Position numbers and translations under genes: made by a program. Shown here piece after piece: positions 31,922-51,390 of a stretch of 64,000 nt of DNA; positions within the stretch are counted from its first letter, which is position 1, and each line of letters starts with the position of its first letter. The DNA lies in the NCBI GenBank assembly GCA_907163375.1, contig CAJQUW010006815.1:62001-126000 (forward strand), in the 5' to 3' direction. Below the pieces are notes generated by a model. It saw only the letters and a program-made list of their open reading frames with translations, made no database searches and was not told the origin of the DNA. The DNA is from Prostheceraeus crozeri. Taxonomy: Eukaryota > Platyhelminthes > Polycladida > Euryleptidae.

Positions 31922-31954
31922 AATATTTTATTCACATCACAGACAAGTACTATG

Positions 31955-32310: not shown

Positions 32311-32330
32311 ATTGCGAGTAGCTTACCGTT

Positions 32331-33620: not shown

Positions 33621-33654
33621 CTAGGGGTCCCTTAAGAATTTTTTTTATTATAAA

Positions 33655-34083: not shown

Positions 34084-34117
34084 CTCAAGCGAAGCTAGCT
34101 AAAGCGCCACCTAAAGG

Positions 34118-35422: not shown

Positions 35423-35494
35423 TTTAAAAGATAAAAAAAATTAAGAAGATAAAAAAAATTGTTTTACCGAAAAGAACCAAAGGTTCTGAGGTTA

Positions 35495-36037: not shown

Positions 36038-36203
36038 TTTTAATAAAAAATTTTAAGTTAAGAATTTAAAGTTATCAAAAAATTTAAATCTATTCTAGTT
36101 ATGAAAAATTTTTAGTTAAGAAATTTTAAGTTAACAAAAATTTTAATCTATTCTAGTTATGAAAAAATTTTAATTAACCTATCGGAGCGAAGCTCCTCTG
36201 GCT

Positions 36204-37538
36204 TTAGCCGATCCTAACCATCTTTCCATTAAGAATTTCAATAGAATATTTTACATCTTCTAGCAATAAACCATAAGCCATCAATGAAGTTGTGGAATCT
36301 TTCTTTTCAATATTAATCGTTACATCACAACCATTTTTAATAATATCTTCAGATTGTGCACTTAAATCGAAACAGAAAATTGGATATAAATGTCTCCAAT
36401 CTCCAGGAGTTAATTGTGGTTCAACTCCAAATTCTATACAAAGATTTCTATAAGAATCATATCCTTCCATAAATTGATTATTGGTATCATCGAATCTTAA
36501 TGGATCAATTGGATATCGAGTTTGATTTAATGAAACTTGTAAACTTCGAATTGTATTAATATGAAAAATATTATTGTTCTTATCAAAACTTGGAGAATTA
36601 TTTCTTTGAAATGTTAGTAATAAATATCTTGGGGTATTCGCAGTTCTAGTAAAATGCCAGTTAAATCTTTGTTCGGAAAAAGTTACTGAACTAGCAGTTC
36701 TCTTTAGAAAATTTACTGGAATTGGTTTGTTAGTATTTAATCTTTTTGCAATAGCTGTTTCAACCTCTAAACTAGGAGTAATATGCTTAATCCACCATTC
36801 AAGTCTATCAATTTTTAAATATGCTTTTTTTCCAGTCTTACCAAAAAAGATTAATTCATTATTTGCTGTACGATGAATTATTAATTTAAATTTTAATTGA
36901 TATGATATTTTATCATAATCTAAATATCCGAATAATGGAGACAATGACCAATTTACTGTCTGTTTACTTTTTTTGTTAAATTCACGTCTTTCTTTATATG
37001 CATCATTATTTGTTTTATTTAAATGTTTTGCAATATTTTCTACATCTTTCGCAATTCCTGCTGCATCTGTTCCAGCGTGAGTTAAATCATCAACAATTAT
37101 ATCATCATTAGTATCAGGAAACCAACCTTCGATTTCATGCTTTTTATTATTTTCACCAATTGTTATAAATCTAAGCATTGTATCAATTACACCTGGGGAA
37201 TCACTTATTGTTTCTATATTTTGAGTTGCAACATCTAAACGCATTTGTGTAAATAAACTTGGGAAAAAATTATTCTCTAGTGTAATATTATCGGTATCTG
37301 GTAATGGTGTTGTAAAATTAGCATCACTATATAAAGAATATTCGCAGTGTAAAAATGAATCAGGTAAATATAAATAACTCTGCTGATTATCAACTTCAAA
37401 AATTAAATCACCTCCAGTGTTTACTCTACTAGAAGATCCGGGATTCATGGCAATTCTTATATAGTCATTCTTTTTTTGATTATAACTGACGAACGGAGGA
37501 TCGTCTAATTTAAATTTATTTTCGATAAGCGAAGACAT
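36204..37538 (-). CDS. Major capsid protein candidate (double jelly-roll)
   Basis: A 444-residue β-rich protein starting MSSLIENKFKLDDPP. Features include an early YLYLPDSFLHC strand, NNFFPSLFTQMRLDV, a central SLSPLFGYLDYDKISYQLKF block, EWWIKHITPSLEVETAI, then GVEPQLTPGDWRHLYPIFCF followed by DLSAQSE near the C-terminus. Length and position between two minor virion genes, next to integrase and protease, fit the hexon-like capsid protein of Polintons and adintoviruses. No single motif is decisive; a structure prediction would be needed. The frame is intact. The stop lies within a GC-rich palindrome (36179-36215). Confidence 0.75.
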   Translation of the reverse strand: MSSLIENKFKLDDPPFVSYNQKKNDYIRIAMNPGSSSRVNTGGDLIFEVDNQQSYLYLPDSFLHCEYSLYSDANFTTPLPDTDNITLENNFFPSLFTQMRLDVATQNIETISDSPGVIDTMLRFITIGENNKKHEIEGWFPDTNDDIIVDDLTHAGTDAAGIAKDVENIAKHLNKTNNDAYKERREFNKKSKQTVNWSLSPLFGYLDYDKISYQLKFKLIIHRTANNELIFFGKTGKKAYLKIDRLEWWIKHITPSLEVETAIAKRLNTNKPIPVNFLKRTASSVTFSEQRFNWHFTRTANTPRYLLLTFQRNNSPSFDKNNNIFHINTIRSLQVSLNQTRYPIDPLRFDDTNNQFMEGYDSYRNLCIEFGVEPQLTPGDWRHLYPIFCFDLSAQSEDIIKNGCDVTINIEKKDSTTSLMAYGLLLEDVKYSIEILNGKMVRIG

Positions 37539-37609
37539 TTTTATAAAAAATAATTTGACTTTTTGTTTTTCTCACAGACAGAAAAAAAAATTTTTACTAA
37601 AATATAATT

Positions 37610-38095
37610 TTAGAATTTTGCTAGACCAGCTCCGCTACAGCTTTGCTGGTTAGACCGAAGGTTGCTGCTCACGCCATTACCTCTTATTTCTTCAATTGTT
37701 TTTTCATTTTGTTTACTATCACCCTCTACAGCTATGTTAGCAATTTTGTTTTTTGTTTCATCTGAAAGTTTTTTTAATTTTTTTAGTTCTTCAGAATCAT
37801 TCTTGAGTTTACGAATAGCTTCTAGTTGTTTTAATTCGTTTTGAGACTTGACAGCATTTGATATTGCACTAGCTGTACTACCTATAGCAGCTGCTCCTTT
37901 AGCAGCAGATGTAATCAAATCTTTATTATTTTTAATTAAGTTAACGATACTACCAATACCAGAAAAGATGCCATCCCCTTCTTTTTGAACGGTTTCTCTA
38001 TTATCATAATGGTAAACCGGATTCATACGTGGTTCATGAGCAATTTTTTGATTTGAAGCAAATTGTTTAAGATTGTGTTTATAAATTATAGGCAT
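37610..38095 (-). CDS. Minor virion protein candidate, 161 residues
   Basis: N-terminal HNLKQFASNQKI, a central hydrophobic/amphipathic stretch (IFSGIGSIVNLI ... GAAAIGSTASAISNAVK), a Lys/Glu coiled coil, and a low-complexity GC-richer C-terminus. Similar in build to the 180-residue neighbour. It is likely a capsid-internal or membrane-lytic protein, by context only. Confidence 0.55.
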   Translation of the reverse strand: MPIIYKHNLKQFASNQKIAHEPRMNPVYHYDNRETVQKEGDGIFSGIGSIVNLIKNNKDLITSAAKGAAAIGSTASAISNAVKSQNELKQLEAIRKLKNDSEELKKLKKLSDETKNKIANIAVEGDSKQNEKTIEEIRGNGVSSNLRSNQQSCSGAGLAKF

Positions 38096-38135
38096 TTTTT
38101 AGTAATAAATTTGACTTTTGGGAAAAATATAAATA

Positions 38136-38182
38136 CGGGCGAAGCCCTGGAAGACATCTCCGATGTCCCATGAACCGATGTC
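38136..38182. repeat. GC-rich hairpin repeat, intergenic copy
   Basis: CGGGCGAAGCCCTGGAAGAC and the following GAACCGATGTCC half, nearly identical to 35654-35705. It lies between two virion-type genes in otherwise AT-rich sequence. Confidence 0.85.
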
Positions 38183-38197
38183 CATTATAAAAAATGT

Positions 38198-38371
38198 TTA
38201 TTTTTTGTTCTTAACTTTTACAGATTGGGTTTTTGGTTTAACTTTATCAGGAACCAAACCTGCATCAATCATTCTTTTTATTCTATGATTTTCTTTCATA
38301 ATATTTCTTTGTTTTATTAACTCTTCTAATTGTTTTATTCTTTTAAAATTATTAGCTCTAATTTTATCCAT
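38198..38371 (-). CDS. 57-residue basic protein, paralogue of the 47109 gene's N-terminus
   Basis: ATG at 38371, stop at 38198-38200. It starts MDKIRANNFKRIKQLEELIK and continues QRNIMKENH, matching the first ~30 residues of the protein at 47109 with few changes, then diverges into a Lys-rich tail. It uses the same A-rich leader before ATG as its neighbours. Function unknown; probably a duplicated oligomerisation or DNA-binding segment. Confidence 0.65.
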   Translation of the reverse strand: MDKIRANNFKRIKQLEELIKQRNIMKENHRIKRMIDAGLVPDKVKPKTQSVKVKNKK

Positions 38372-38555
38372 TTTTAAAATTATATACTTTTATATTTTTA
38401 AATTTTTTTAAAAATTATATTTATACTTTTATATTTTTAAAATTATATTTATATTTTTTAAATTATATTTATATTTTTTAAATTATATTTATATTTTTTA
38501 TGATTTTTATTTTTTGTAGGTAAAAAATATTTAAGTTAATATTTACAATACTCGT

Positions 38556-39443
38556 TTAAGATTTACGTTTATGAATATCTAACAACTTCGAGATAACTTT
38601 ATTAATTGCTTGTTGCCCTTTATCTATTGCATCAAGAAGCGTGTGATGTACTTTAATTTCTTTTTCAGTCATTTCTAATTTTTTCTCACTTTTCTTTAAT
38701 TCTGTTTTTAAAGCATTTAATTGAACTTTAAGACCATCTACTTTTCTTTTAACGGAATCTAACTGTTCTTTATTTTCTTTAGAGTTTTCTTGTAAATTTT
38801 TCTTTAATTCATTTTCTAAATTGATTTTCAGAGTTTTCATTTTATCAACTTTTTCATTAAGTGATTTTACTTCAATTTTTAATTGATTTATTTTTTTAAT
38901 TTGTTGAGCAATTTTAGAACTCAATTCATTCACACTTTTTTGGAATGTAGTTTGTAACTGCTTTAAATTTTTTTTAATTCTTTCAGGTAGTTTTTCTATT
39001 TCATCTTCTAATTGTTCTTTTAACATTTTTATCTGATGTTTATTTTTAATTACAGCAGATTTTAAATTTATAGAAAGTAATATTAAAATTTTTGATTGTT
39101 CAGAAATCTTTTTAAAAAGTTTTGCTATATCTGCTTCTAGCTCTCTATCCTTTTTATCAAGTTTTAATAATTTTTCGTTTAATGATTTGTCATTAAGTTT
39201 AAGCAACTTTAATTCGTTCATCAGCGGAACCATAACATCGTTTATATATTTTTCTTTTAAGTCATTGATTTGTGTATCAACATATTGTTTATTTGTTAAC
39301 TCTGTATTTTGTTGTGGAAGAATAGAAAGATGTAATGGACCAGATAAAACGTCTCCAGTTTTCATTATATAATTTTCTAGTTCTATTTCTGATTCACGAT
39401 TATTCGGGATATATGCACCTCCACCAACATTTGGTAACATCAT
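38556..39443 (-). CDS. Coiled-coil fibre-like protein
   Basis: About 295 residues from the preferred ATG at 39443 (MMLPNVGGGAYIPNN, preceded by the TTTAAAA leader seen at other genes); an upstream ATG at 39488 is possible. Near the N-terminus it has MKTGDVLSGPLHL and then TNKQYVDTQ, the pair of motifs common in phage tail-fibre shafts. Nearly all the rest is heptad-rich coiled coil (Leu/Ile with Lys/Glu). A trimeric spike or fibre is inferred. Gene intact. Confidence 0.65.
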   Translation of the reverse strand: MMLPNVGGGAYIPNNRESEIELENYIMKTGDVLSGPLHLSILPQQNTELTNKQYVDTQINDLKEKYINDVMVPLMNELKLLKLNDKSLNEKLLKLDKKDRELEADIAKLFKKISEQSKILILLSINLKSAVIKNKHQIKMLKEQLEDEIEKLPERIKKNLKQLQTTFQKSVNELSSKIAQQIKKINQLKIEVKSLNEKVDKMKTLKINLENELKKNLQENSKENKEQLDSVKRKVDGLKVQLNALKTELKKSEKKLEMTEKEIKVHHTLLDAIDKGQQAINKVISKLLDIHKRKS

Positions 39444-39528
39444 TTTTAAACAATAAAAATAAAATATTTTCTGATTATAAAAATACATAAATTATAAAAA
39501 TAAAATTTTTCCTAATAAAAATAAAAAA

Positions 39529-40398
39529 ATGGAAATGACTCAAATTTGTCAAGTTTGCAATATGCGTTTTTTAAATCAAACACTATTATATTCTCATATG
39601 AAAAACACACCATGTGGTATGCATATGAATCAATTACAACCTAATAATAGTATGCAACCTAATAATAGTATTCAGTATAATAATATTCAACCTAATAATA
39701 GTATTCAGTATAATAATATTCAATCAGAGCAACCATTACAAAGATTAAAGCATTTATTTATTTCAGATAAAGAACAAAATCTTTATACTGCTAGAATAAA
39801 TACACCTAGGCAAAATACACCTAGGCAAAATAATAATAATTATTTAGCACAAAATAATAATGTAGCACAAAATAATCCTTTTGTTCAAAATAATCCTTTT
39901 GTTCAAAATAATAATGTAGCTCAAAATAATAATGTAGCTCAAAATAATTATATTGATAAAAATCAATTTGTTGAAAGTAATAACAAAAAAATATGTTCCA
40001 AATGTAATAAAAATATAACATCAAAAAATTTTGCACGTCATTTAAAATTATGCGAACAACCAGAAGAGGTTAAAAAAAATAAAAAAGATAAATTAAAAGA
40101 TCAGTTATGTCGTAATTGTAATAAATATTTTACAATTCAAGGAATTGCTAATCATTATAATTCTTGTATAAGTTCTACAAGACAATGTACAAGTTGTCAA
40201 ATTACTAAACCTAAGACAGAGTTTTATGATAGTAAATATCAGTGTAAGGATTGTTTAAAAGAAAAAGTTAAATGTAGAGGTTGTCAAAAAATTATATTAA
40301 AGAAAAATTTTCAGCGACATGTAACACTATGTCCAAAACTTAATCAACATAATAATCAACATAATAATAATTTATATCAAAATAATAATTTATATTAG
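39529..40398 (+). CDS. Multi-zinc-finger protein with Asn/Gln repeats
   Basis: 289 residues. An N-terminal C2H2 finger (CQVCNMRFLNQTLLYSHMK) is followed by Asn-rich repeats (QPNNSIQYNN, QNNNVAQNN), then fingers at CSKCNKNITSKNFARHLKLC, CRNCNKYFTIQGIANHYNSC, a CxxC pair near TKPKTEFYDS, and CRGCQKIILKKNFQRHVTLC. The last ones are C2HC type. It is divergent from the coiled-coil gene across a 41-85-bp gap, so both probably share a bidirectional promoter. Nucleic-acid binding is likely; the role is unknown. Confidence 0.75.
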   Translation: MEMTQICQVCNMRFLNQTLLYSHMKNTPCGMHMNQLQPNNSMQPNNSIQYNNIQPNNSIQYNNIQSEQPLQRLKHLFISDKEQNLYTARINTPRQNTPRQNNNNYLAQNNNVAQNNPFVQNNPFVQNNNVAQNNNVAQNNYIDKNQFVESNNKKICSKCNKNITSKNFARHLKLCEQPEEVKKNKKDKLKDQLCRNCNKYFTIQGIANHYNSCISSTRQCTSCQITKPKTEFYDSKYQCKDCLKEKVKCRGCQKIILKKNFQRHVTLCPKLNQHNNQHNNNLYQNNNLY

Positions 40399-40420
40399 TA
40401 TTTCTATTAAAATAGACTTA

Positions 40421-40492
40421 TATATTTAAATAGTTGTATTTCAACTAAAATAGTTGTATTTTAACTAAAATAGTTGTATTTCAACTAAAATA
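40421..40492. repeat. ~23-bp tandem repeat
   Basis: About three copies of AAAATAGTTGTATTTCAACT, each with an internal inverted repeat (AGTTG...CAACT). It follows the zinc-finger gene and may terminate or process its transcript. Confidence 0.7.
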
Positions 40493-40558
40493 ATCTTATA
40501 TATATTAAAATATTATTTTTTTATAAAGAATAAAATATTATTTTATTAAAATATTCTT

Positions 40559-40690
40559 AAGCATTCCGGAAGAGAGGAGAGGTTCGGAACATACTTCTTT
40601 TGAGTATAGGAACAAAAAGTCCGACACATTCCGGAGGTTCTACAGAGGTTAAAAACACTCATAAGAGTGTAAGAATGCGAGTCCGGAATT
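40559..40690. other. GC-rich intergenic block with several potential hairpins
   Basis: In a strongly AT-rich spacer lies a compact GC-richer tract with two ACATTCCGGA-like words, a terminal CCGGAAT complement, GTTCGGAAC, an ATACT...AGTAT stem and ACACTCATAAGAGTGT. It precedes the ATPase gene by about 40 bp. It could be a structured leader or non-coding RNA; no known family is recognised. Confidence 0.45.
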
Positions 40691-40731
40691 AAAAAATAAT
40701 AATTCCTAAATTTTTATTTTAAAAATATTAA

Positions 40732-41106
40732 ATGAATAAAAACGAAAATTTGGAAGATTTATATTCACCGGTTATAATTAAAAGTAATAAAAGTAATAAA
40801 AGTAATCTAAGTCGTCATAAATCTCTTAATGCAATAAACGAAATAATAAATAATTATATGAATAACACTGAGTTTCAAGATACACTAACCCCTCAAGATC
40901 CGAATCTCAAAGATATTAATAATATTGTAGAAAATCCTATATATAATACTAAATATAATAATAATATAGATAAAAATATATATAATAATATAGATAAAAA
41001 TATATATAATAATATAGATAAAAAATATTTAGAGACACTACCCCCTAATTCATCTCTTAATAAAAAATACCACAATCAGATCTTACACGTCTTTGGAATT
41101 TTTTAA
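40732..41106 (+). CDS. N-terminal part of frameshifted ATPase gene
   Basis: 124 residues, Asn/Lys-rich with a thrice-repeated NNIDKNIY motif, no recognised domain. Its frame ends at 41106, but the +1 frame from about 41065 is open and runs through a hydrophobic segment (LLACILIFFIYHLVICIG) straight into the ATPase. The switch lies at an A-run (about 41062-41067). This is most simply the start of the same gene. Confidence 0.55.
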   Translation: MNKNENLEDLYSPVIIKSNKSNKSNLSRHKSLNAINEIINNYMNNTEFQDTLTPQDPNLKDINNIVENPIYNTKYNNNIDKNIYNNIDKNIYNNIDKKYLETLPPNSSLNKKYHNQILHVFGIF

Positions 41107-41126
41107 AATTTCATTGTATAAAAATA

Positions 41127-42272
41127 TTGTTAGCATGTATTTTAATATTTTTTATTTATCATCTTGTTATATGTATTGGAAATCAATGGGGTTACTTTCT
41201 AACAGAGGAACAAAAGAGAATAAATTTTTATAAACAAGAAATAAAAACTTTTAAAGGATGGAAGACTGAGGAGGATAAGATTAAGGATAAAACTAATAAT
41301 AAAAATATTAAACAAGGTAAAATGTATCAAGAAAATTTACATTTCATTGTTTACGGTAAAACTGGAAGTGGTAAGACTACGTTTATTAAAAAATATATAA
41401 ACCAATATTATAAGGACGAAACAAAAGTACATATTTTTTGTATGCATACTTCTGAATGGCCAACTTTTACAAACGTCTATAATGATAAACAATTAGATGA
41501 GTTACAAGATATGGAAAGTTTTGCTGGTACACCTGAAAATAAATCTTTATTAATTTTAGATGATGTTGCAAGTTTATCAAAACAAAAAAATATGTCAGAA
41601 ATATTTACAAAAGGAAGACATCAAAATATTCAAATAGTTGTATTAGCTCATAAAGCTTGTGATGTAGATAATAAGATTAGAGAAAACATTCAAACATTTT
41701 TTACAACTACACAAAATAATGCAGCATTCTTTAATGATATTAATAAAAATTATAAAATGAATATGCCTTTATCATATTATACACATCATAAATATGGAAT
41801 AATACGTGTTGACACCATAAGTGAACATATGCAAGTATATGATAAAGATTTAAATATATTAGTAGATACCGAACATGAAATCTATAATAACTCTCAAGAT
41901 TTTGATATTAGAATATATGCAAATGCAAAACATTTATCAAATCAAGTTATAGAACAAATAATTATCTTTTTAGAGTCTGAAGCAAAAGTACCACTAAAAA
42001 TTATTCCTGATACATTTTATTTTTATTTTGATCATTATTTAAATGCAAAATTTGGTATACCAATACCAAAAAGATTACAAGATAATGAAACATTAAACTA
42101 TTTAAAAATTGCAATAAATGATGTTAGAAACGGTTTAAGAAAAGCAACACCAATAATAACTGATGTTAAATCTACATTTTCTGATGCTAAATCTACATTT
42201 GATGAAGCCAAAAAAACATATAATGATATAAAACCATTAATAAATGGTGTAAGTGAAATACTTAATAATTAA
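41127..42272 (+). CDS. P-loop ATPase 1 (A32/FtsK-like), membrane-anchored
   Basis: The displayed frame starts at TTG; the real start is probably at 40732 through a frameshift. A membrane segment (residues ~1-20) precedes Walker A YGKTGSGKTTF (~76-85) and Walker B LLILDDVA (~140-147). FTKGRHQNIQIVVLAH follows, resembling the sensor region of packaging ATPases. The C-terminus is helical. The gene set has a second ATPase at 48973-49762, so one is the packaging motor and this one may have another role. Confidence 0.72.
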   Translation: MLACILIFFIYHLVICIGNQWGYFLTEEQKRINFYKQEIKTFKGWKTEEDKIKDKTNNKNIKQGKMYQENLHFIVYGKTGSGKTTFIKKYINQYYKDETKVHIFCMHTSEWPTFTNVYNDKQLDELQDMESFAGTPENKSLLILDDVASLSKQKNMSEIFTKGRHQNIQIVVLAHKACDVDNKIRENIQTFFTTTQNNAAFFNDINKNYKMNMPLSYYTHHKYGIIRVDTISEHMQVYDKDLNILVDTEHEIYNNSQDFDIRIYANAKHLSNQVIEQIIIFLESEAKVPLKIIPDTFYFYFDHYLNAKFGIPIPKRLQDNETLNYLKIAINDVRNGLRKATPIITDVKSTFSDAKSTFDEAKKTYNDIKPLINGVSEILNN

Positions 42273-42287
42273 ACAAATTTATCATAA

Positions 42288-42317
42288 TCGAACCGAAGGT
42301 TCTAGGGCTTCGCCCGA
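42288..42317. repeat. GC-rich hairpin repeat, intergenic copy before polymerase
   Basis: TCGAACCGAAGGTTCTAGGG followed by CTTCGCCCGA; identical over the core to the copy inside the polymerase at 42762-42791. It contains two stem-loops (GAACCGAAGGTTC and GGGCTTCGCCC). Confidence 0.88.
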
Positions 42318-42446
42318 TTTTACAGATATATTAGAATTTTTCCATTATATATATTTTAGAATTTTTTTCTCTAAAAATTAAAACATAAATTTTTTTTTAA
42401 AAAAAAAATTTCTCAAATTTTCTCTAAAAAAATAAAAAAATAAAAA

Positions 42447-45400
42447 ATGGAAAAATTTTATTGCAACTTATGTAAAAAAAAGTTACAAACAAAAATAAGT
42501 TATCAATCTCATCTACAAAGTAAAATGCATTTACAAAATGTAGAACGAGTTGATGATGGAAATATATTAAAATTAAATAGTTATAAAAACTATCTAGAAA
42601 CATTGCCTACTGATATAAAAGTTAAAAAAATGTTTGATGATTATTCACATTCGGAATATAAAAAATTTTTTAATAGTGAAGATGAAGCCGTAACAGATAT
42701 AAAATATTTATTTAGCGATACTGATGAATTTAACGAAATAGATGAATTTGATGAAGCCGTACGAACCGAAGGTTCTAGGGCTTCGCCCGAAACAGATATA
42801 AAATATTTATTTAATCAGTCTTTTGAATATAATGAAACCGATAAAACTTTTTCTGATATTCTAACCAACTTTTATAATATATTTAAGAAATCTTTCAAAT
42901 GTTATATGAATGTAGAAGTACTTTATACAAAAAATGGACCTGATGGAATTCCTGAAGAAATAATACAAGGACATTTTACAAATTCGCAAGAAATTCATAA
43001 TGTAAATGATATACAACCCATATTTGAATCGATGATACTTAAATTAGAAAATTGTATAATTGAAGCCCAGTTACGTGAATCTGGTTGGAGATTTGTTAAA
43101 ATACTATCTAAGAAAATAGTAATTGATAAATATAAAAATAATACTGGTGGTAGTTATGTTCCTTTGCCTTTCAGTTCACCACAATTAATCAACATAAAAA
43201 ATGAAGATGATTATTGTTTTCTGTGGAGTATTATAGCACATTTACATCCTGCAAAATATCATAAAGAAAGAGTAAGTCATTACAATAATGAAGAATACAT
43301 AAGTGAATTTGATCTTTCTGATGGCTTAGATGAATTTCCATATGATTATAATAGGTTACTAAAGTTTCATAAAAAGAATAAAAATTTAATTGAAGTAAAT
43401 GTTTTTGAATTAAATGTGAATTATGTTTCTATTGGTAAAATTATTCCACTTTACTCAGATTCAAAAGAATTTTATTTGAATAATAAAAATTTATGTCAAT
43501 CAGAAATAGTATATAATGATAGAGGAAATTACATGCATCATAATATTTTTTACCAAGGAAATATAATATGTACTGAAAAATTTGAACTTGTTAAAACACT
43601 ATCACCAATAATGATTAATCACAATAATTATAAAGGACGTAATGATGATTATAATTACAAATATTCATCTTTATCTTCAGAATATCAACAAAAATTAGAA
43701 AATTTAAATAAAAGTTTACAAAAATGTAAAATAGATTATCAACAACAAACAAAAATGTTACTACAAGAATATCACCATAAATATCAAAATAAGATAGAAA
43801 CAATTCAAAAATTAAATGAAGAAAATAATAAAAAATTAGATGAAGAAAATAATAAAAAATTAAATAATAAAGAATTAAATGAATGTTTAAAAAAATGTCT
43901 ACAACAATATAAAGAACAATATGATAAAGAATATATTTATCAGCTACAAATATTAAATCAAAATTATTATCAAAATACATTTAATATTACAAAAGAAATT
44001 AATGAAACACATGAAATATATAAAGATGAATTTGAAAAACTAGAACAGTCAAAACAACCAGCACAAGCGAATATATTATATTATCAGGGACATTTTATAT
44101 TGTGTAAAGATGTTTCTATATTTACAAAAACTTCAGATAATAAAAATTTTCCTTGTCTTCAATGTATGACAAGTTTTAGAACTTTAGAAGAAATGAATAG
44201 ACATTTGGAGAATTGTCAACAAAATGAAGCAGTTCAAAATACTTTTCCTAAAGATGATTATTTAGAATATAATAAATGGTATTTTAAAAATAAAGTACCC
44301 TTTACTATTTATTGTGATTTTGAAGCATATAATGTTAATATGACACAAAATCAAACGGAAAGTTCCAGGGCTTCACCCGATTCTGAAAATTATAATTCTG
44401 AAAATTATAATTCTGAAAATTATAATTCTGAAAAAAGTGCGCCTGGAAAAAGTGCACCTGGAAAAAGTTCAACTGAACAAAGTAAAGAAAAATATTTATT
44501 TGAACAAAAACCATTATGTTGGGGAATGTACATTCATTCGAATTATCCTGAATTATTTAAATCAGAATATTTACAATACTATGGTGAAGATAGTTCAGAA
44601 ATATTTACAAAGAAAGTAGAAGAATTACAAGGACGTTTTTCACAATTGCTTGAAACAAATAAACCAATGATACCATTAACGGATGAAGAAAGAAAAGAAT
44701 TTTATGATGAAATAAATTGTTATTACTGTGGAAAAGGTTTTACAAATAAATATAAAACTGGCAGAGGTAGATATATTAATAAAGTAAAAGATCATGATCA
44801 TCTAAATGGATTATATAGAGGTGCAGCACATAATTCTTGTAATCTTAATGCTAACAAATTTAAATATAACTTTGTTCCTCTATATTTCTACAATGGTTCT
44901 AAATATGATTTCCATCTAGTAATGAAAGATTTATTTTCATCTGAAAAATTACATCAACAAAAAATAAATGTACTATGTAAACAAGAAGAAGAATATTTTT
45001 CAATGCAATTAGGTTGTATTAGAATTTTAGATGCATTTAGATTTTTTTCTCCTTATTCATTAGATGTTATGGGAAAAACTTTGAAACCTGAACAATGTAA
45101 AATATTAAATAAATATAATTTAAAACCTTTAAAAGGAATATTTCCGTATGAGTATATAGCCTGCGGCTCACAGTCGAAGACTGATATAACTGGAGATAAA
45201 ACCTGTGGTTCACAGTCGAAGACTGATTTTAATTCTGTGAATAAAATTATGGAAGAAGAACAACTTCCTCCAATAAATAAATTTAAATCAACATTAAAAC
45301 AATCACAATTATCTGAAGAAGATTATGCAGAAGCTGAAAAAAATTGGAGAGAGTTAAATTGTAAAACAATGTATGATTATACAATGAAATATCTACAGAT

Positions 45401-46043
45401 AGATGTATTAATACTAGCTGATCTTTTTGAAAACTTTCGTGATATGTGTTTAGAATATTACGGAATAGATCCATGTTATTGTTATTCTACACCAGGTTTA
45501 ACATGGCTAGCAGGATTAAAACATACTGGTGTTAAACTTAAACATTATAAAGAAAATACATATGATAAATTATTATTTTTTGAATCTGGAATTAGAGGTG
45601 GAGTTTCATCAGTTTTAGGTAATAGATATGTTAAATGTTATAATAAGAAAGTAAATCCACAAGAATATGGAATAATGAAACCTTTATCTCCAGAAGAAAA
45701 AGAAAAAATATTAGAAATTTTTCGAACGAAACCAGAAGGAGTAGAACGTGAAAAAGCAATTGATGAATTCATGAGAGAAAACTATTTGTTATATTATGAT
45801 TTTAATAGCTTATATTCTTCTTGCATGATACAAGAATTACCAACAGGTGAGATGACATGGTGTAATAATCTTGATTATCAAAAAACATATGATGGAAATC
45901 GTAATTCTGGTTATATATATGAAGTTGATTTAGTATACCCTGATTATATAAAAGATGCAACAAAATATTATTCCTTTCTGTCCAGAAAACAAAATTCCCA
46001 ATATAGAAGATTTTTCAGATTATCAAAAATCTTTAATTCCTAA
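42447..46043 (+). CDS. Protein-primed DNA polymerase B, N-terminal and exonuclease part (frameshifted)
   Basis: 1198 residues in this frame. N-terminal C2H2 finger (4-27), a second at ~571-592, Exo I YCDFEAYN (~621), a CYYCGKGF...DHDHLNGLYRG zinc/HNH-like insert (~757-790) found in many Polinton polymerases, Exo II YNGSKYDFH (~815), Exo III YLQIDVLILAD (~983) and polymerase motif A YYDFNSLY (~1115). The frame ends early at 46043; the remaining polymerase continues in another frame from about 45970. The gene contains several in-frame GC-rich inserts and a tandem Ser-Ala-Pro-Gly-Lys repeat. Protein-primed replication of the linear element is the family role. Confidence 0.9.
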   Translation: MEKFYCNLCKKKLQTKISYQSHLQSKMHLQNVERVDDGNILKLNSYKNYLETLPTDIKVKKMFDDYSHSEYKKFFNSEDEAVTDIKYLFSDTDEFNEIDEFDEAVRTEGSRASPETDIKYLFNQSFEYNETDKTFSDILTNFYNIFKKSFKCYMNVEVLYTKNGPDGIPEEIIQGHFTNSQEIHNVNDIQPIFESMILKLENCIIEAQLRESGWRFVKILSKKIVIDKYKNNTGGSYVPLPFSSPQLINIKNEDDYCFLWSIIAHLHPAKYHKERVSHYNNEEYISEFDLSDGLDEFPYDYNRLLKFHKKNKNLIEVNVFELNVNYVSIGKIIPLYSDSKEFYLNNKNLCQSEIVYNDRGNYMHHNIFYQGNIICTEKFELVKTLSPIMINHNNYKGRNDDYNYKYSSLSSEYQQKLENLNKSLQKCKIDYQQQTKMLLQEYHHKYQNKIETIQKLNEENNKKLDEENNKKLNNKELNECLKKCLQQYKEQYDKEYIYQLQILNQNYYQNTFNITKEINETHEIYKDEFEKLEQSKQPAQANILYYQGHFILCKDVSIFTKTSDNKNFPCLQCMTSFRTLEEMNRHLENCQQNEAVQNTFPKDDYLEYNKWYFKNKVPFTIYCDFEAYNVNMTQNQTESSRASPDSENYNSENYNSENYNSEKSAPGKSAPGKSSTEQSKEKYLFEQKPLCWGMYIHSNYPELFKSEYLQYYGEDSSEIFTKKVEELQGRFSQLLETNKPMIPLTDEERKEFYDEINCYYCGKGFTNKYKTGRGRYINKVKDHDHLNGLYRGAAHNSCNLNANKFKYNFVPLYFYNGSKYDFHLVMKDLFSSEKLHQQKINVLCKQEEEYFSMQLGCIRILDAFRFFSPYSLDVMGKTLKPEQCKILNKYNLKPLKGIFPYEYIACGSQSKTDITGDKTCGSQSKTDFNSVNKIMEEEQLPPINKFKSTLKQSQLSEEDYAEAEKNWRELNCKTMYDYTMKYLQIDVLILADLFENFRDMCLEYYGIDPCYCYSTPGLTWLAGLKHTGVKLKHYKENTYDKLLFFESGIRGGVSSVLGNRYVKCYNKKVNPQEYGIMKPLSPEEKEKILEIFRTKPEGVEREKAIDEFMRENYLLYYDFNSLYSSCMIQELPTGEMTWCNNLDYQKTYDGNRNSGYIYEVDLVYPDYIKDATKYYSFLSRKQNSQYRRFFRLSKIFNS
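42762..42791 (+). repeat. 30-nt in-frame hairpin insert in polymerase gene, with empty-site twin
   Basis: The stretch GATGAAGCCGTA...ACAGATATAAAATATTTATT occurs twice. At 42684 it is uninterrupted; at about 42750 exactly 30 nt (ten codons) of the hairpin repeat separate its halves. The insert adds RTEGSRASPE without disturbing frame. Confidence 0.9.
44356..44380 (+). repeat. Diverged hairpin repeat inside polymerase gene
   Basis: CGGAAAGTTCCAGGGCTTCA followed by CCCGA, read as ESSRASP in the polymerase, the same repeat frame as at 42762 and in the gene at 35495. It is just before tandem SENYN and SAPGK repeats, in a loop before the second half of the exonuclease domain. Confidence 0.8.
45159..45227 (+). 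repeat. Second type of GC-rich in-frame insert, tandem pair
   Basis: Two copies of CTG[CT]GG[CT]TCACAGTCGAAGACTG, 42 nt apart (45161 and 45203), encoding CGSQSKTD twice. Each contains the hairpin CAGTC-GAA-GACTG. Its GC content contrasts with the flanking polymerase sequence. Confidence 0.8.
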
Positions 46044-47001
46044 GAAATATAGGCCAACAAAAAAACTTATGTTAACACAAAGCAATAAAGGAAAGTATGT
46101 TGTTGAAGGAAGAATGCTAGATTGGTATTTAGATCATGGAATGATTCTCACAAAAATTCACCGGAAACTAGTGTATAAAAAATCTAAATGGTTAAAAGAT
46201 TATATTGAGTTCAATATTGAAAAACGCAAAATATCTAAAAGAAATAAAGATGATTTTGGAAACGTGTTCTTCAAATTAATGAATAATGCATTTTATGGTA
46301 AGACTTTAGAAAATGTGCGTAATAGACAAAATATTGAAATAGTTTATGATAAAGATAGGTTTCAAAATTTAACAAGGAAACCTACATATAAAAGAACTAC
46401 TAGATTCAGTGATGAACTTTGTGCTGTTCATCTAAGAAGAAGCATTGTAAAACATGATAAGTTTAATTTTATTGGTTTCACTATATTAGAATTAGCTAAA
46501 CTATTTATGTATAGATTTATATATGATTATTTAGCGCCTGCTTATGGCAAAAACTATAAATTACACTTTACAGATACCGATTCTGTTTTCTTAGAATTAG
46601 CAATACCGTATAATTCTACACTTGATGAAGAAATTAATAAAATAAAAGATATCATTCATCCTTCTGATTTATGTAAAGTAAAAGATGAATTAGAAGGAAA
46701 TGAAGATTTCATAACAGAAGCTATATTTTTAAAATCTAAATGTTACTGTTATAATACAACTAATAATATTAAAACACATAAAACATTAAAAGGAATTTCA
46801 AAGGCATCAGTGGCTAATCAAATAACATTTCAAGATTATAAAAATGCATTATTTAATAATGAAATAAAAACAGCATGTAATTATAGACTTAATTCAAAAA
46901 AACATAAAATGTATTTAAAAGAAGAACATAAATTAGCATTAGATCCATTTGATGATAAAAGAAAAATTTTGCCTGATGGAATAACTACTTTACCTTTTTA
47001 A
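45955..47001 (+). CDS. DNA polymerase B, C-terminal part (after frameshift)
   Basis: In-frame from about 45970 onward relative to the polymerase palm. Motif B is at FKLMNNAFYGKTLENVRNR (~46280-46335) and motif C at HFTDTDSVFLEL (~46565-46600). A C-terminal thumb-like region ends at 47001. The break from the upstream frame is a one-base difference close to 45968-45978. Whether this is a mutation, an assembly error or programmed shifting cannot be decided here. The ATG at 45955 is internal and unlikely to be a true start. Confidence 0.88.
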   Translation: MQQNIIPFCPENKIPNIEDFSDYQKSLIPKKYRPTKKLMLTQSNKGKYVVEGRMLDWYLDHGMILTKIHRKLVYKKSKWLKDYIEFNIEKRKISKRNKDDFGNVFFKLMNNAFYGKTLENVRNRQNIEIVYDKDRFQNLTRKPTYKRTTRFSDELCAVHLRRSIVKHDKFNFIGFTILELAKLFMYRFIYDYLAPAYGKNYKLHFTDTDSVFLELAIPYNSTLDEEINKIKDIIHPSDLCKVKDELEGNEDFITEAIFLKSKCYCYNTTNNIKTHKTLKGISKASVANQITFQDYKNALFNNEIKTACNYRLNSKKHKMYLKEEHKLALDPFDDKRKILPDGITTLPF

Positions 47002-47108
47002 TTTTCTAATTTCTATTTTCTAAATATAACAATATAACAATATAACAATATAAAATATAAAATATTATAAAATAAAATAAAATAATAATATAAAATTATC
47101 ATATAAAA

Positions 47109-47798
47109 ATGGATAAAGTTAGAGCTGATAATTTTAAAAGAATAAAACAATTAGACGAATTAATAAAACAAAGAAATATTATGAAAGAAAATCATCTTCA
47201 ACATAGAATGACAAAAGCTGGTATTCAATCTGATATGTTTGATAAATTAAAATTAACTGAAGAAGTAAAAACTGATTATGAAAAAACTGTCGAACCATTT
47301 AAAACTCTTGAAAAGGAACTTAATGAAAAACGTGTTGATATAGCGGATCCTGTACTTAAAACACTATTAGATGACTATGGTTTATTAGAGGCAAACATAG
47401 ATAAAAAATTACCAAAATCTATGTTATTCGAACATTCTACTTTCTTTTTAGATAAAAAATTATTTGCAAGATTTTATCTTGGTGGTAAAGAAATATTTCC
47501 ACAACCTTTACGAGGATTAATTTTTACGCCAGATAAAAAACCTATTAGTTTAGATAGAAATTTTGTTGATCTTTTAAGAGGAGCAGATTTAAAAAATTAT
47601 GCTGTAGAAGATCTAATAAAATATAAAACTATATTAGATAGAGTAGGTGTAGTAAAATCTCTTAGACGTTATAAACAATTAGAAAATTTATTATCATCGG
47701 GAGTTAAAGTAGGGAAAGGTTTATCTGAAAAACAGAAAACAAATAACAGAAAACAGAAACAACTGTATTTTTACCAGATGATCCACAAGAATTACTAA
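47109..47798 (+). CDS. Unknown conserved-looking protein, N-terminal part (frameshifted)
   Basis: 229 residues starting MDKVRADNFKRIKQLDELIK, basic and helical, with a middle block (FLGGKEIFPQPLRGL-like; FYLGGKEIFPQPLRGLIF at ~141-158) and K/R-rich segments. The last ~15 residues are probably out of frame: another frame opens at 47747 and carries a plausible C-terminus to 47944. Its N-terminus is duplicated as the 57-residue protein at 38198-38371. Genes of this position in Polinton-like elements are often poorly characterised virion or replication factors; no function is assigned. Confidence 0.65.
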   Translation: MDKVRADNFKRIKQLDELIKQRNIMKENHLQHRMTKAGIQSDMFDKLKLTEEVKTDYEKTVEPFKTLEKELNEKRVDIADPVLKTLLDDYGLLEANIDKKLPKSMLFEHSTFFLDKKLFARFYLGGKEIFPQPLRGLIFTPDKKPISLDRNFVDLLRGADLKNYAVEDLIKYKTILDRVGVVKSLRRYKQLENLLSSGVKVGKGLSEKQKTNNRKQKQLYFYQMIHKNY

Positions 47799-47944
47799 AT
47801 AGATTAAATATTTTAATATCGGCAATAAAAGAAGGACATAATTCTAGTTTTAATGAAATTCATGCTATATTGAAAAGACTGTTAGAAAAGAAGATTCTAA
47901 ATGAAGAGGATTATAAAAGTGTAGCTGAAATATGTTGTTTCTAA
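47747..47944 (+). CDS. C-terminal continuation of the 47109 gene in another frame
   Basis: An open segment containing TVFLPDDPQELLNRLNILIS, then a helical part, ending at a TAA (47942-47944). It lacks its own start, follows the A-rich stretch where the upstream frame fails, and looks like the natural end of the upstream protein. Confidence 0.6.
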   Translation, partial: QKTETTVFLPDDPQELLNRLNILISAIKEGHNSSFNEIHAILKRLLEKKILNEEDYKSVAEICCF

Positions 47945-48013
47945 TTTTTATAAAAAAAATTTCATAAAAAAATATTTCATAAAAAAATATTTATTTAATT
48001 TTTTAGTTTGAAA

Positions 48014-48802
48014 ATGTGTTCAGCAGATTTAGACAAAATTAATAATCATTTACAAAATTTAACAGAGATTTTGGGTTCATCAAAATTTAGTACGACGTTA
48101 AAAATTATAACAACTACTTCATCACACACTTGTAATTTAGAACCCATTCTACATTTGGAACAAAATAAAAATTATCAAATTGCATTGACTAGTTTCTCTA
48201 CATTTAACACTATTCAAAACGTTATCAAAGATGTGAATGATCAATTTAGATATTCTACTGATAAAGGCAAAACATGGAAAATACTAACTTTTCTTCCTGG
48301 TTCTTACGAAGTTGAATCAATATCAAATGAAATTAAGAGGCATTTAGGTATACCATTTAAAGATAAGAAACAATTACATTTTGCAGTTGAACCGGCAGTT
48401 AATAAATTTTCTCTTACTTTAGACGAAAATCATCAAGTTGATTTTAATCATGATAGATCATTGTCAAAGCTATTAGGATTTAATAAACAAACCTATAGTC
48501 AAGGTTATCATTTAGGTGAGAAGATTCCAAAAATAACTGAAATAAATTCAATTGTTGTACATTGTGACATTATTGAAGGAGGATATATAAATGGTAAATT
48601 ATCAAATTTAATATTCAGTTTTCCAGCTTTTACTGTACCCATTGGTTATAGATTAAATGTATTTCCACAAACATTAATATATTTTCCTATTACAAGAAAA
48701 ACTATTAACAACATTAACATTAAAATCACTGATGAAAAAGGACAAGAAATAAATTTTGGAGGTGAAGAGATTATGATAGATCTTTTGGTACGGGAGGTAT
48801 AA
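48014..48802 (+). CDS. Penton-like minor capsid protein (single jelly-roll)
   Basis: 262 residues from ATG 48014. The protein is β-rich, with YQIALTSFSTFNTI, GSYEVESISNEI, KLLGFNKQTYSQGYH, a VHCDIIEGGYINGKLSNLIFSF strand pair, and a C-terminal ITDEKGQEINFGGEEIMIDLLV. This order matches the penton-base-like minor capsid protein of Polintons and adintoviruses, which would occupy the five-fold vertices. Gene intact. Confidence 0.82.
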   Translation: MCSADLDKINNHLQNLTEILGSSKFSTTLKIITTTSSHTCNLEPILHLEQNKNYQIALTSFSTFNTIQNVIKDVNDQFRYSTDKGKTWKILTFLPGSYEVESISNEIKRHLGIPFKDKKQLHFAVEPAVNKFSLTLDENHQVDFNHDRSLSKLLGFNKQTYSQGYHLGEKIPKITEINSIVVHCDIIEGGYINGKLSNLIFSFPAFTVPIGYRLNVFPQTLIYFPITRKTINNINIKITDEKGQEINFGGEEIMIDLLVREV

Positions 48803-48850
48803 ACTTTTACGCTACAATAGAGAAGTTTAATTTTTTTTATCATTTTCATT

Positions 48851-48900
48851 ATTAATCTTATTAATCTTATTAATCTTATTAATCTTATTAATCTTATTAT
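48851..48900. repeat. Short tandem repeat ATTAATCTT(A)
   Basis: About five copies of a 10-bp unit in the spacer after the penton gene. Confidence 0.75.
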
Positions 48901-48972
48901 TAGAAACAAAAAAATAAACTTAAATTAAAATTTTATTTTTATTTTTTTGTTTCTAAAAACACTAATTCAATA

Positions 48973-49762
48973 ATGGATGAATTTATTACTTTAAAAATGA
49001 ATGAAATGTCTTTAAAATAAAAAAAAACTTAAATTTAATCATCATCCAAATTTATCTAATAAAGTTTTGTCAGTTATTTGTGGAAGATCAGGATGTGGAA
49101 AAACATATCTATTATTTAAAATTTTAACGACTCCAAATTTTTTGGATTATAACAATCTTATAATTTATACAACAACGGCAGAACAACCCGTCTATCAATT
49201 TTTAAAATATGGATTTGAAAATAATCTTACAAAAACAGCAATTGCTTCTCTATTCGAAGAATACGAAAAATCTGAATATGAAGAAGAAATAAATTTGTGG
49301 TGTGAAGAAGCAGCAAAAAATAAACAATTAGTTGAATCCAATAAAAATAAGCATATAAAAATACAATTAATAGATGATAGTGGTAATATGCAAGATCCTA
49401 GTAAACTAGATAAAACAATGAAACATTGTGTAATTTTTGATGATTGTGTTAATGACAGAAATCAGTCAGTTCAAAGAAATTATTTCACAAGAGGTAGACA
49501 TAATAACTGTAGTGTATTTTATTTGACACAAAGTATGTATTCATTAGATGGAAGTGTTATTAGAAAGAATGCAAATATATTTATACTATTTGAAATAAAT
49601 GCAAGAAACTTAAGTGATTTGTTAAGAGATTTATGCATAAGAGATAAAGATGAATTTAAACAATCGTGTAATAATGCTTGGTCAAAAGATTATGGATTTA
49701 TCACAATTAATATTGATAAAAAAATTCATGAAAGAGTTATCGAACAATTGTTTACCGAGTAA
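48973..49762 (+). CDS. P-loop ATPase 2, A32-like packaging ATPase (frameshifted near start)
   Basis: ATG at 48973 begins a short frame (MDEFITLKMNEMSLK) that stops in an A-run at about 49014-49027. The next frame is open just after it, with FNHHPNLSNKVLSVI, Walker A CGRSGCGKTYLL (~49082) and Walker B CVIFDD (~49430). YFTRGRHNNCSVFYLTQSMY and a helical end follow. Size (~260 residues) and the FTRGRHxN...TQ signature fit the genome-packaging ATPase of Polintons. A one-base slip in the A-run explains the broken start. Confidence 0.8.
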
Positions 49763-49926
49763 TAAAAATATACAAATATAATGTTTTAATACTTTATTTT
49801 TTATTATCAGCTTTAATTTTGTCTATTTTTTTAAAATATAATATTTGAATTTTGTGGTAACATTGGTATACAGCAAAAACATTTTACTGAACAAATTATT
49901 TTTTTATTACTTTGTTGTTTGTAATC

Positions 49927-49992
49927 TTTTCGTTTAAAGTTTTCACGTTTAAAGTTTTCACGTTTAAAATTTTCTCGTTTAAAATTTTCTCG
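49927..49992. repeat. 18-bp tandem repeat
   Basis: Four diverged copies of a unit like AAAGTTTTCACGTTTAAA, downstream of the minus-strand membrane-protein gene. Confidence 0.7.
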
Positions 49993-49994
49993 TA

Positions 49995-50684
49995 TTAAGT
50001 TTTGTTTAATAAAGTTTTGTCTAATAAAGTTTTTAGCTCTTCTAAAAAAATTTTATCATTTTCTTCATTAAAAATTTTATCATCAATAAAAGTTTTACCA
50101 TCACTAGAAATTTTACCATCCTTTTTATTTTTATCATTAACTTTTTCTGTCTGTGATTGAAATGATATTTGATTTATTTCATTAGCTATTTGATCAAATT
50201 TTTCAATCTCATCTAACGTAATAACATTATCATCACATACTCTTTGAAAGTAGTAGTGTAGTTTATCATAGACTTCTTTAATATGTAAATGCTTAGTTTT
50301 TAATGATTTTCGTTTCTTAGTTATTAAAGATTTATCTAACATTGTAGCAAGTGAAGTTGCAAAAACACCCGTACCTGTTAAAGCTGTAGCAACTACTGGA
50401 ATTACTAAAACACCTGAAGATATAACAATTGTTAAAGCACCTAAACTTATTGTTAAGAATATGCCAATTCCTTGTGTTACATTCTTAACTTTAGTCCATC
50501 TCTTTCTTAATTTTTTATAATGCTCTAATTTAAATAATAATTGTGTTTCCTTATCTTTCATATACCTAACTCTATCTCTGTGTTTTTCAATATTTAATTC
50601 ACTTATTTTTAATTGAGACAAAGAAGGATATATTCTTGAGGTTCCTTCCATTTCTGAAGTTCCTTCCACTTTTGTTTCTTCCAT
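49995..50684 (-). CDS. TIR-borne membrane protein, full-length copy
   Basis: 229 residues starting MEETKVEGTSEM. A charged coiled coil (25-65) precedes two hydrophobic segments (about 73-108; IGIFLTISLGALTIVISSGV and on), then a charged C-terminal half rich in Lys, Asp and Glu. No family recognised. Its 5' part lies inside the right TIR, so a diverged, shortened copy exists at the left end. The leader contains one of the GC-rich hairpin repeats. Confidence 0.7.
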   Translation of the reverse strand: MEETKVEGTSEMEGTSRIYPSLSQLKISELNIEKHRDRVRYMKDKETQLLFKLEHYKKLRKRWTKVKNVTQGIGIFLTISLGALTIVISSGVLVIPVVATALTGTGVFATSLATMLDKSLITKKRKSLKTKHLHIKEVYDKLHYYFQRVCDDNVITLDEIEKFDQIANEINQISFQSQTEKVNDKNKKDGKISSDGKTFIDDKIFNEENDKIFLEELKTLLDKTLLNKT

Positions 50685-51390
50685 TTTTAAAGAAATATTT
50701 TTAACGGCGAAGCCCTGGAAGACATCTCAGATGTCCCGCAAGTCACATGATATATTTTAAAAACCTGAAAAACGTCTAAACTCATGAATTTAATCATTTT
50801 TAAAAATACTAACTTTTATGATTTTCAGTGTCCTAGAACGGTCATGATTTTCAAGGTAAAAATTGTAATTCACAAATTTGAGATTCTTAACTTTTATAAT
50901 TTTTGGTGTCCTAGAACGGTCATGATTTTCAAGGTAAAAATTGTAATTCTCAAATTTGAGATACTCAACTTTTATAATTTTTAGTGTCCTAGAACGGTCA
51001 TGATTTTCAAGGTAAAAATTGTAATTCACAAATTTGAGATTCTTAACTTTTCTGATTTTTCGGTGTCCTGGAACGGTCATGATTTTCAAGGTAAAAATTG
51101 TAATTCTCAAATTTGAGATTTTGAAAAATTTGAAAATTGGGTACTTTTAAAAACGACATAAATTCATGAATTTAGACCCTTTTTCAGGTTTTTAAGACCT
51201 AAATTCATGAATTTATGTCGTTTTTAAAAGTACCATTTTTGAAAAAAATGGTACTTTTTGAATGAACAAATTCATGAATTTAGGTCTTAAAAACCTGAAA
51301 AAGGGTCTAAATTCATGAATTTATGTCGTTTTTAAAGATACTATTTTTTTTGATTTTATGGTGTCCTGGAACGGTCTTCTTCCCATTACT
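50490..51390. repeat. Right terminal inverted repeat
   Basis: Inverse counterpart of 30930-31830: hairpin-rich outer end (about 51140-51345), ~84-bp tandem array (50800-51110), hairpin repeat (50705-50739) and the start of the membrane-protein gene. It ends ...CCCATTACT at 51390, next to the GTCACC duplication. Confidence 0.87.
50705..50739. repeat. GC-rich hairpin repeat in right TIR (twin at 31588-31622)
   Basis: CGGCGAAGCCCTGGAAGACA and then TCTCAGATGTCCCGC, upstream of the membrane-protein ATG in both TIRs. It shares GAAGCCCTGGAAGACATCTC with the copies at 35654 and 38136. Confidence 0.85.

What the first reader, a model, noticed from the sequence alone, without database searches (positions are those of the whole stretch)
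42684..42795. Rickettsia-palindromic-element-like insertion caught with its empty site inside a viral polymerase gene
A ~34-bp segment of the polymerase gene is present twice about 70 bp apart. The second copy is split by exactly 30 nt of a GC-rich double hairpin that also exists between genes (42288-42317). The insert adds ten codons and keeps frame. This looks like movement of a tiny palindromic element into coding DNA, a behaviour known from Rickettsia palindromic elements but, to my knowledge, not described for Polintons.
Basis: partly seen in the sequence, partly recalled or inferred. Interest (0 to 1): 0.9.

Follow-up and report, generated by a model that had tools for sequence, protein, structure and literature searches.

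The report
Tiny hairpin transposons in Polinton genes
Very short GC-rich double-hairpin DNA pieces appear to have jumped repeatedly into the genes of a large family of virus-like Polinton elements in one genome, adding a few amino acids to the viral polymerase without breaking it.

Summary
In detail: window 42762-42789 is a 28-nt double hairpin (net +30 nt, ten codons) in the N-terminal part of a Polinton PolB gene, with an identical copy at 42289-42316. The host assembly (2.05 Gb) holds 3,211 exact copies of its 27-nt core (backwards-read control 0). All 68 loci read around such copies lie in Polinton sequence of this family. Paralogous Polintons give natural filled/empty pairs: eight PolB sites are empty in some copies and filled in others by hairpin type A, E or F. 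Seven of ten A/E sites with empty alleles show a 2-bp AT, TA or TT duplication in at least one copy; net lengths are mostly 30, 36 or 39 nt. Four of 17 PolB paralogs with several cassettes are one open stretch of 1,526-1,565 aa. The closest relatives that cover the sites lack the blocks. The two repeats in the finding are an old tandem repeat; its first copy is itself an insertion site, filled in other paralogs. The closest known kind is the mobile GC clusters of yeast mitochondrial DNA rather than Rickettsia palindromic elements. Mobility is well supported; the inserting enzyme is unknown.

The parts
42762..42789 (+). Type A double-hairpin element (28-nt core CGAACCGAAGGTTCTAGGGCTTCGCCCG) in PolB, site P1; flanking dinucleotides TA (42760-42761) and AA (42790-42791)
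   Evidence: natural empty alleles GCCGTAACAGAT in paralogs, (10 hits to one empty allele, overlapping loci included)
42289..42316 (+). Type A element, identical, 16 nt after the packaging-ATPase stop codon; flanked by AT and AT; no empty allele found
42681..42714 (+). First copy of the 34-bp repeat = site P0, empty here; filled by A, E or A+E in other copies
42823..42823 (+). Site P2, empty here; filled by A or E in other copies
44352..44379 (+). Decayed type A element in PolB (site D; SRASPD); an intact A sits here in L048/L067 (one copy) and L085, an E in L065; empty in L070
45158..45183 (+). Type F double hairpin in PolB (AGCCTGCGGCTCACAGTCGAAGACTG); empty in other copies
45200..45225 (+). 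Second type F double hairpin in PolB, with a compensated stem change; empty in other copies
45868..45868 (+). PolB site empty here; filled by A (L073) or E (L058, L066, L069, L071) elsewhere
46769..46769 (+). PolB site empty here; filled by E in L059, L071, L073, L075
35656..35706 (-). Type E element inside ORF 35495-36037 (..STEMSSRASPEG..)
   Evidence: SRASP absent in the 20 relatives aligned (of 33 found)
38136..38186 (-). Type E element between genes; shorter allele in L074
31590..31622 (+). E-like element in the left TIR
50705..50737 (-). E-like element in the right TIR
36183..36211 (+). Type B double hairpin overlapping the MCP stop codon
35473..35501 (+). Double hairpin overlapping the stop codon of ORF 35495-36037
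42447..46043 (+). PolB ORF, upstream piece, carrying 4 cassettes; the frame breaks near its 3' end and continues in ORF 45955-47001
45955..47001 (+). PolB ORF, downstream piece (PF03175, E 8e-5, below the curated cut-off)
30930..51390 (.). Polinton: TIRs, integrase/PLA2-like ORF, DJR capsid, A32-like ATPase, PolB; 6-bp duplication GTCACC at 30924-30929 and 51391-51396

Best explanation
These are non-autonomous micro-transposons of the GC-cluster kind that live inside one expanded Polinton family. SHOWN: 28-37-nt GC-rich double hairpins occur at many sites in paralogous Polintons. Filled alleles differ from natural empty alleles by the whole cassette plus, at 7 of 10 A/E sites in at least one copy, two duplicated target bases (AT, TA or TT). 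In PolB the A, E and F cassettes found are all sense, and A/E cassettes in open frames all read in one codon phase (..SRASP..). One site can hold A, E, A+E or nothing. INFERRED: a staggered 2-nt cut in AT-rich target DNA receives a copy of the cassette, probably while the Polinton is single-stranded or replicating by its protein-primed polymerase, where the hairpins can fold and be recognised. Filled alleles then spread by Polinton amplification and by recombination between co-resident copies. Selection removes insertions that break frame. The inserting enzyme is not identified.
For: 3,211 exact 27-nt cores in the host assembly, backwards-read control 0. 68 of 68 loci read lie in Polinton sequence. 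Natural filled/empty pairs, with perfect duplications at the TIR site, P0, P2, D, 45868 and 46769, and at P1 in L074. At 45868 the same E cassette is flanked by AT/AT where the local allele is AT and by TT/TT where it is TT, so the duplicated bases come from the target. 16 PolB copies show 14 occupancy patterns over 8 sites, and 18 of 28 site pairs show all four combinations (coded by hand). All 29 A/E and 21 F cassettes that the patterns found in PolB are sense. 41 of 46 SRASP-type cassettes (sense strand searched) lie in open stretches >200 aa, all 41 in the same frame. E and F stems vary less than loops (0.042 vs 0.256; 0.056 vs 0.194 changes per position).
Against: The duplication is imperfect at P1 in the window, L060 and L072 (TA/AA) and L062, L103 (AA/TA), at ~40928 (AA/AT), at 47922 (AA/TA, gap -3), at the TIR-E site (CT/TT), and in some P0 (TA/CA) and P2 (TG/TT, TA/TT) alleles. 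No transposase or donor strand was identified. Type A stems are not better conserved than its loops (0.080 vs 0.065), and 20 of 162 of its pair cells are broken. By my count 56 of 73 exact A places read sit at the same TIR position, so 3,211 copies are not 3,211 insertions. Template switching at 2-nt microhomology could mimic a target duplication. The copies are related and were picked near A-bearing places, so counts of copies are not counts of events.
Confidence: 0.8

Rival explanations
1. Replication error, not transposition: the cassettes are copied by template switching or snap-back of the protein-primed polymerase at hairpins, and then spread and swapped by gene conversion among co-resident Polintons.
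For: Cassettes swap in place: window and L072 (A) and L060 (E) share the derived right flank GAAACAG at P1. Tandem A+E in L059/L075. Arrays in L059/L060. F1 and F2 differ by a compensated stem change. Imperfect flanking dinucleotides at several sites.
Against: Cassettes in the filled/empty pairs are whole with nearly constant ends (truncated ones exist, e.g. L050/L068 at the 42289 site). At 45868 the two-base duplication follows the local allele (AT or TT) and not a donor flank.
Confidence: 0.3
2. Functional hairpins (transcript ends, packaging or replication signals) that belong to the Polinton, with copies in genes as by-products.
For: Several copies sit at gene ends (42289 after the ATPase stop; 36183 and 35473 over stop codons). 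Mimivirus transcript ends follow a hairpin rule (seen as a citation in PMC5799277).
Against: Each of the eight PolB sites is empty in some copies. L001, a related element, has none. A terminator inside PolB would be harmful (inference).
Confidence: 0.12
3. The ten residues are an old conserved loop and the short alleles are deletions.
For: None found.
Against: P0003 and P0004 lack the block. P0111-P0114 lack the block in the other ORF. None of the 262 homologs listed contains SRASP. Empty alleles show one dinucleotide where filled ones show two.
Confidence: 0.03

Closest known systems
GC clusters of yeast mitochondrial DNA (GC42; PMC4478555, first part of the text and passages read)
   Same: GC-rich palindromes of tens of nt in AT-rich DNA; presence/absence at homologous sites; a 2-nt putative target duplication (AG there); merger and shuffling of units; [quoted passage not shown] stems less variable than loops (here for types E and F only); mechanism unsettled
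   Different: Mitochondrial, not in a nuclear virus-like element; target AG rather than AT/TA/TT; no sequence similarity by eye; mostly intergenic; the commonest unit has 25 identical copies in S288c (its Table 1)
Double-hairpin elements and repetitive hairpin-forming elements of organelle DNA (PMC2800124, passages)
   Same: Hairpins, scattered, diverse, thought to invade repeatedly
   Different: Mitochondrial, mainly intergenic; no 2-bp duplication in the passages I read
Rickettsia palindromic elements (PMC10969869 and PMC1950309, passages)
   Same: Palindromic element inserted in frame in unrelated genes, adding a peptide
   Different: Longer (about 150 bp in the review), bacterial
Polinton/Maverick elements (PMC11071308 and PMC12220804, passages)
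   Same: The carrier: PolB, rve integrase, DJR capsid, ATPase, TIRs, 6-bp duplication
   Different: The passages read mention kilobase-sized nested retroelements in polinton-like viruses, no hairpin micro-elements

Membership tests
Yeast mitochondrial GC clusters (GC42 kind) | GC-rich palindromic unit of about 30-50 nt in an AT-rich genome | tested here: met
   28- and 37-nt cores, slightly shorter at the low end; carrier 22-28% GC over 38-52 kb
Yeast mitochondrial GC clusters (GC42 kind) | 2-nt target duplication | tested here: met
   perfect at 7 of 10 A/E sites in at least one copy; AT/TA/TT, not AG
Yeast mitochondrial GC clusters (GC42 kind) | presence/absence polymorphism, merger and shuffling | tested here: met
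Yeast mitochondrial GC clusters (GC42 kind) | location in mitochondrial DNA | tested here: not met
   68 of 68 loci read are in Polinton sequence
Rickettsia palindromic elements | length about 100-150 bp | tested here: not met
   28-37 nt; RPE length
Rickettsia palindromic elements | insertion in frame in coding genes | tested here: met
Rickettsia palindromic elements | rickettsial genome | tested here: not met
   2.05-Gb assembly with a piggyBac-like transposase ORF
Tc1/mariner-derived MITE (features recalled) | TA target duplication only, with terminal inverted repeats | tested here: not met
   AT and TT duplications as well as TA; no terminal repeats beyond C..G
Polinton (carrier element) | PolB, rve integrase, DJR capsid, ATPase, TIRs and 6-bp duplication | tested here: met
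   the PolB hit in the window (PF03175) is below the curated cut-off, but close homologs carry it

The most novel reading that the evidence does not exclude
A new class of nuclear, virus-borne micro-transposons (28-37 nt) moved by a structure-specific enzyme acting on hairpins exposed during protein-primed replication. It would be the nuclear counterpart of mitochondrial GC clusters, and it would act as a generator of short peptide insertions in viral proteins.
Probability: 0.35. Interest if true: 0.9.

Novelty: new variant of a known kind. Interest (0 to 1): 0.8.

Why it matters
How mitochondrial GC clusters and palindromic elements move is an open question, studied in small genomes with few copies. 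Here one genome holds thousands of copies in an expanded carrier with natural filled/empty alleles, target duplications, type swaps and coding insertions, so models of movement can be tested by counting. It also shows a route by which a viral polymerase gains short in-frame peptides. In the listings (20 of 310 shown; 12 of 12; 12 of 17; 10 of 22) I saw no paper on such elements in Polintons; beyond titles and abstract starts I read only passages of a few. The adintovirus and nematode-Polinton papers were not held.

Tried and rejected
Conserved-loop/deletion reading: rejected by outgroups and by the two-versus-one dinucleotide pattern. Tiny intron: not needed, since many frames stay open, and by eye no GT..AG pair matches the insert ends. 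Rfam: 0 matches at gathering scores in 30900-51400. Relatives in IMG/VR: none by motif, none confirmed by PolB, MCP or integrase. GTDB genomes gave 29 loci; L001 (57% identity, the rest 26-43%) is the only close one and has no double hairpin; none of the 29 holds GGGCTTCGCCC. In that scan some other contigs exceeded expectation (L025 27 vs 12.7, L028 4 vs 0.8, L027 3 vs 0.5, L021 2 vs 0.3), so the bare hairpin count is not specific. A double hairpin in the integrase ORF (35278-35306) lies in a variable N-terminus; its status as an insertion is inconclusive (22 relatives aligned of 1,430 found). The type B line used a structure string one character short and is dropped. Fold energies are only modestly below shuffles (z -1.5 to -2.3 as DNA, -0.9 to -1.6 as RNA). 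Genome-wide counts of type E and of TIR alleles did not complete.

Full report
WHAT THE CARRIER IS. Window 30930-51390 is a Polinton about 20.5 kb long. It has terminal inverted repeats, a 6-bp target duplication GTCACC (30924-30929 and 51391-51396; read from the flanks), an ORF with rve integrase and PLA2-like domains, a double-jelly-roll capsid and an A32-like ATPase. PolB is split over two overlapping ORFs (42447-46043 and 45955-47001): the window's copy has a broken frame near 46 kb, while open copies exist elsewhere. The Polinton is AT-rich (22-34% GC in 2-kb steps, against 33-42% around it). The surrounding DNA holds a piggyBac-type transposase ORF and LINE-like ORFs (by eye), so I take the host to be animal-like; it is not named in the tools.

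THE OBSERVATION. The finding is real. The 28-nt element CGAACCGAAGGTTCTAGGGCTTCGCCCG is two hairpins (stem 5 with loop GAA; 2-nt spacer; stem 4 with loop TTC). It splits the second of two repeats in PolB (42762-42789) and is repeated exactly at 42289-42316. A scan for perfect tandem hairpins finds 7 in the Polinton against 0.08 expected, and 2 against 0.94 in the flanks. They fall into types. Type A is the reported one. Type E is GACATCGGAGATGTC + spacer + GGGCTTCGCCC, sharing hairpin 2 with A. Type F is AGCCTGCGGCT CA CAGTCGAAGACTG. Type B is GGAGCGAAGCTCC + a second hairpin.

COPIES IN THE HOST GENOME. The 27-nt core of type A has 1,670 + 1,541 exact matches in the 2.05-Gb assembly; the same pattern read backwards has 0. 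A 301-bp piece of PolB around the insert has 2,182 first-look candidates, of which 40 were scored, at 98-100% identity; the others were not examined. I read the surroundings of A copies in 68 loci (28, 40; 20 of these 40 are also shown). All 68 match Polinton sequence; the last 20 were also compared with the window's non-Polinton part and gave no hit. By my count they hold 73 of the 100 places that one search listed (the first by contig number, not a random sample), and 56 of the 73 sit at the same position of TIR repeat units, so copy number mostly reflects amplification of the carrier.

FILLED AND EMPTY SITES. The larger pieces (L058-L077) were picked near A-bearing places, so the sample favours such Polintons. 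Alignment of PolB from 17 paralogs and the window (L058 and L077 incomplete) shows eight sites with both filled and empty alleles: P0 near 42691, P1 at 42761, P2 at 42823, D at 44351, F1 at 45157, F2 at 45199, 45868 and 46769. P0, P1, P2, D and 45868 each hold A in some copies and E in others. L059 and L075 hold A and E in tandem at P0. By hand coding of 16 complete copies (one chimeric F allele, L074, counted as F1) there are 14 occupancy patterns, and 18 of 28 site pairs show all four combinations, which needs recombination or repeated gain or loss. Comparison of filled with natural empty alleles covers ten A/E sites. Seven show a perfect two-base duplication in at least one copy: AT at the TIR, D and 45868; TA at P0 and, in L074, at P1; TT at P2, 45868 and 46769. 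Three do not: ~40928 (AA/AT), 47922 (AA/TA, gap -3) and the TIR-E site (CT/TT). Within the seven there are also imperfect alleles: TA/AA at P1 in the window, L060 and L072; AA/TA at P1 in L062 and L103; TA/CA at P0 in L078, L087 and L092; TG/TT and TA/TT at P2. Type F also adds 30 nt, read here as a 28-nt core plus AT; that split is my reading. The 46769 allele adds 36 nt. The best single case is 45868: the same E cassette is flanked by AT/AT in L066 and L069 and by TT/TT in L058 and L071, matching the local empty alleles. Random dinucleotide pairs in PolB match with probability 0.104.

CODING CONSEQUENCES. Net lengths are 30, 36 and 39 nt, plus 69 for A+E; a decayed E at P2 in L071 has an extra base. 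All 29 A/E and 21 F cassettes that the patterns found in PolB are sense; the type B motif, whose strand is arbitrary, reads antisense in 7 of 7. Of 46 SRASP-type cassettes found in 18 PolB segments, 41 lie in open stretches over 200 aa and all 41 read ..[S/T]RASP.. or a point variant (that script searched the sense strand only); 5 do not lie in such stretches. PolB in L059, L068, L073 and L075 is a single open stretch of 1,526-1,565 aa with several cassettes; the window and most of the other paralogs are broken into two or more stretches. So cassette-bearing polymerases are at least not excluded by selection.

OUTGROUPS. PolB relatives P0003 and P0004 lack the ten residues at P1. P0002 starts downstream of P1; it, P0003 and P0004 lack the SRASP block at D, and P0002 and P0004 lack both F blocks (11 of 109 relatives aligned). 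In ORF 35495-36037, SRASP is absent in the 20 relatives aligned of 33 found; the four nearest (77-89% identical over the alignment) lack the block entirely, while some distant ones have other residues nearby (P0115, P0119, P0124, P0125, P0127). SRASP occurs in none of the 262 homologs listed. L001, a related 7.2-kb element, has no such hairpins.

CASSETTE SWAP. At P1 the window and L072 (A) and L060 (E) share the derived right flank GAAACAG (empty: GTAACAG), which suggests one insertion whose cassette was later exchanged, probably through the shared hairpin 2. This resembles the shuffling described for yeast GC42 (PMC4478555).

STRUCTURE CONSTRAINT. In L058-L077 and the window, counted over distinct sequences, type E has 0.042 changes per stem position against 0.256 in loops, and F 0.056 against 0.194, with two both-side compensated cells in F and one in E. 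Type A shows no difference (0.080 against 0.065) and has 20 of 162 pair cells broken, against 9 of 130 in E and 1 of 54 in F. The copies are related, so this is suggestive only. Reversed controls for A, E and F gave 0.

MECHANISM. Shown: whole cassettes present or absent with small target duplications, repeated use of sites, and swaps. Inferred: a 2-nt staggered cut and copy insertion, likely tied to single-stranded stages of protein-primed replication; spread by carrier amplification and recombination; purifying selection on frame. Passages of PMC11071308 relate Polinton polymerases to those of mitochondrial linear plasmids; whether this links the two settings of GC clusters is speculation.

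COMPARISON. It works like yeast mitochondrial GC clusters and, in its coding effect, like Rickettsia palindromic elements. It is filed as neither: the location test for the first and the length and host tests for the second fail. I would call it a new variant of the GC-cluster kind, in a nuclear virus-like carrier.

Noticed in passing
window 28515-30962 (-) and 51313-51801 (-): The Polinton appears to sit inside a LINE-like element: an RT-like ORF lies on one side, an endonuclease-like ORF on the other (by eye), and a 6-bp duplication GTCACC bounds the Polinton.
   Followed up: partly
window 42447-47001: PolB of this copy is split by a frame break near 46 kb, while some other copies are open throughout.
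   Followed up: partly
window 34118-35422 (-): One ORF carries both a PLA2-like domain and an rve integrase; homologs with both Pfam domains are common in the protein search.
   Followed up: no
window 31195-31522 and 50811-51139: TIRs contain 78-bp tandem repeats; in many copies these units carry the type A element.
   Followed up: partly
L077 2459-3661: Two PolB 5' ends lie in opposite orientation in one locus, suggesting a Polinton inversion or nested copy.
   Followed up: no
L071 4720-4774; L059/L060 arrays matching window ~47922: Arrays of several different double hairpins in a row.
   Followed up: partly
L001: A 7.2-kb Polinton-like contig with integrase and a PolB-like ORF is binned in a Muriicola (bacterial) MAG, probably contamination.
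   Followed up: no
window 24965-26692 (-): Uninterrupted piggyBac-type transposase ORF, 575 aa (PF13843).
   Followed up: no
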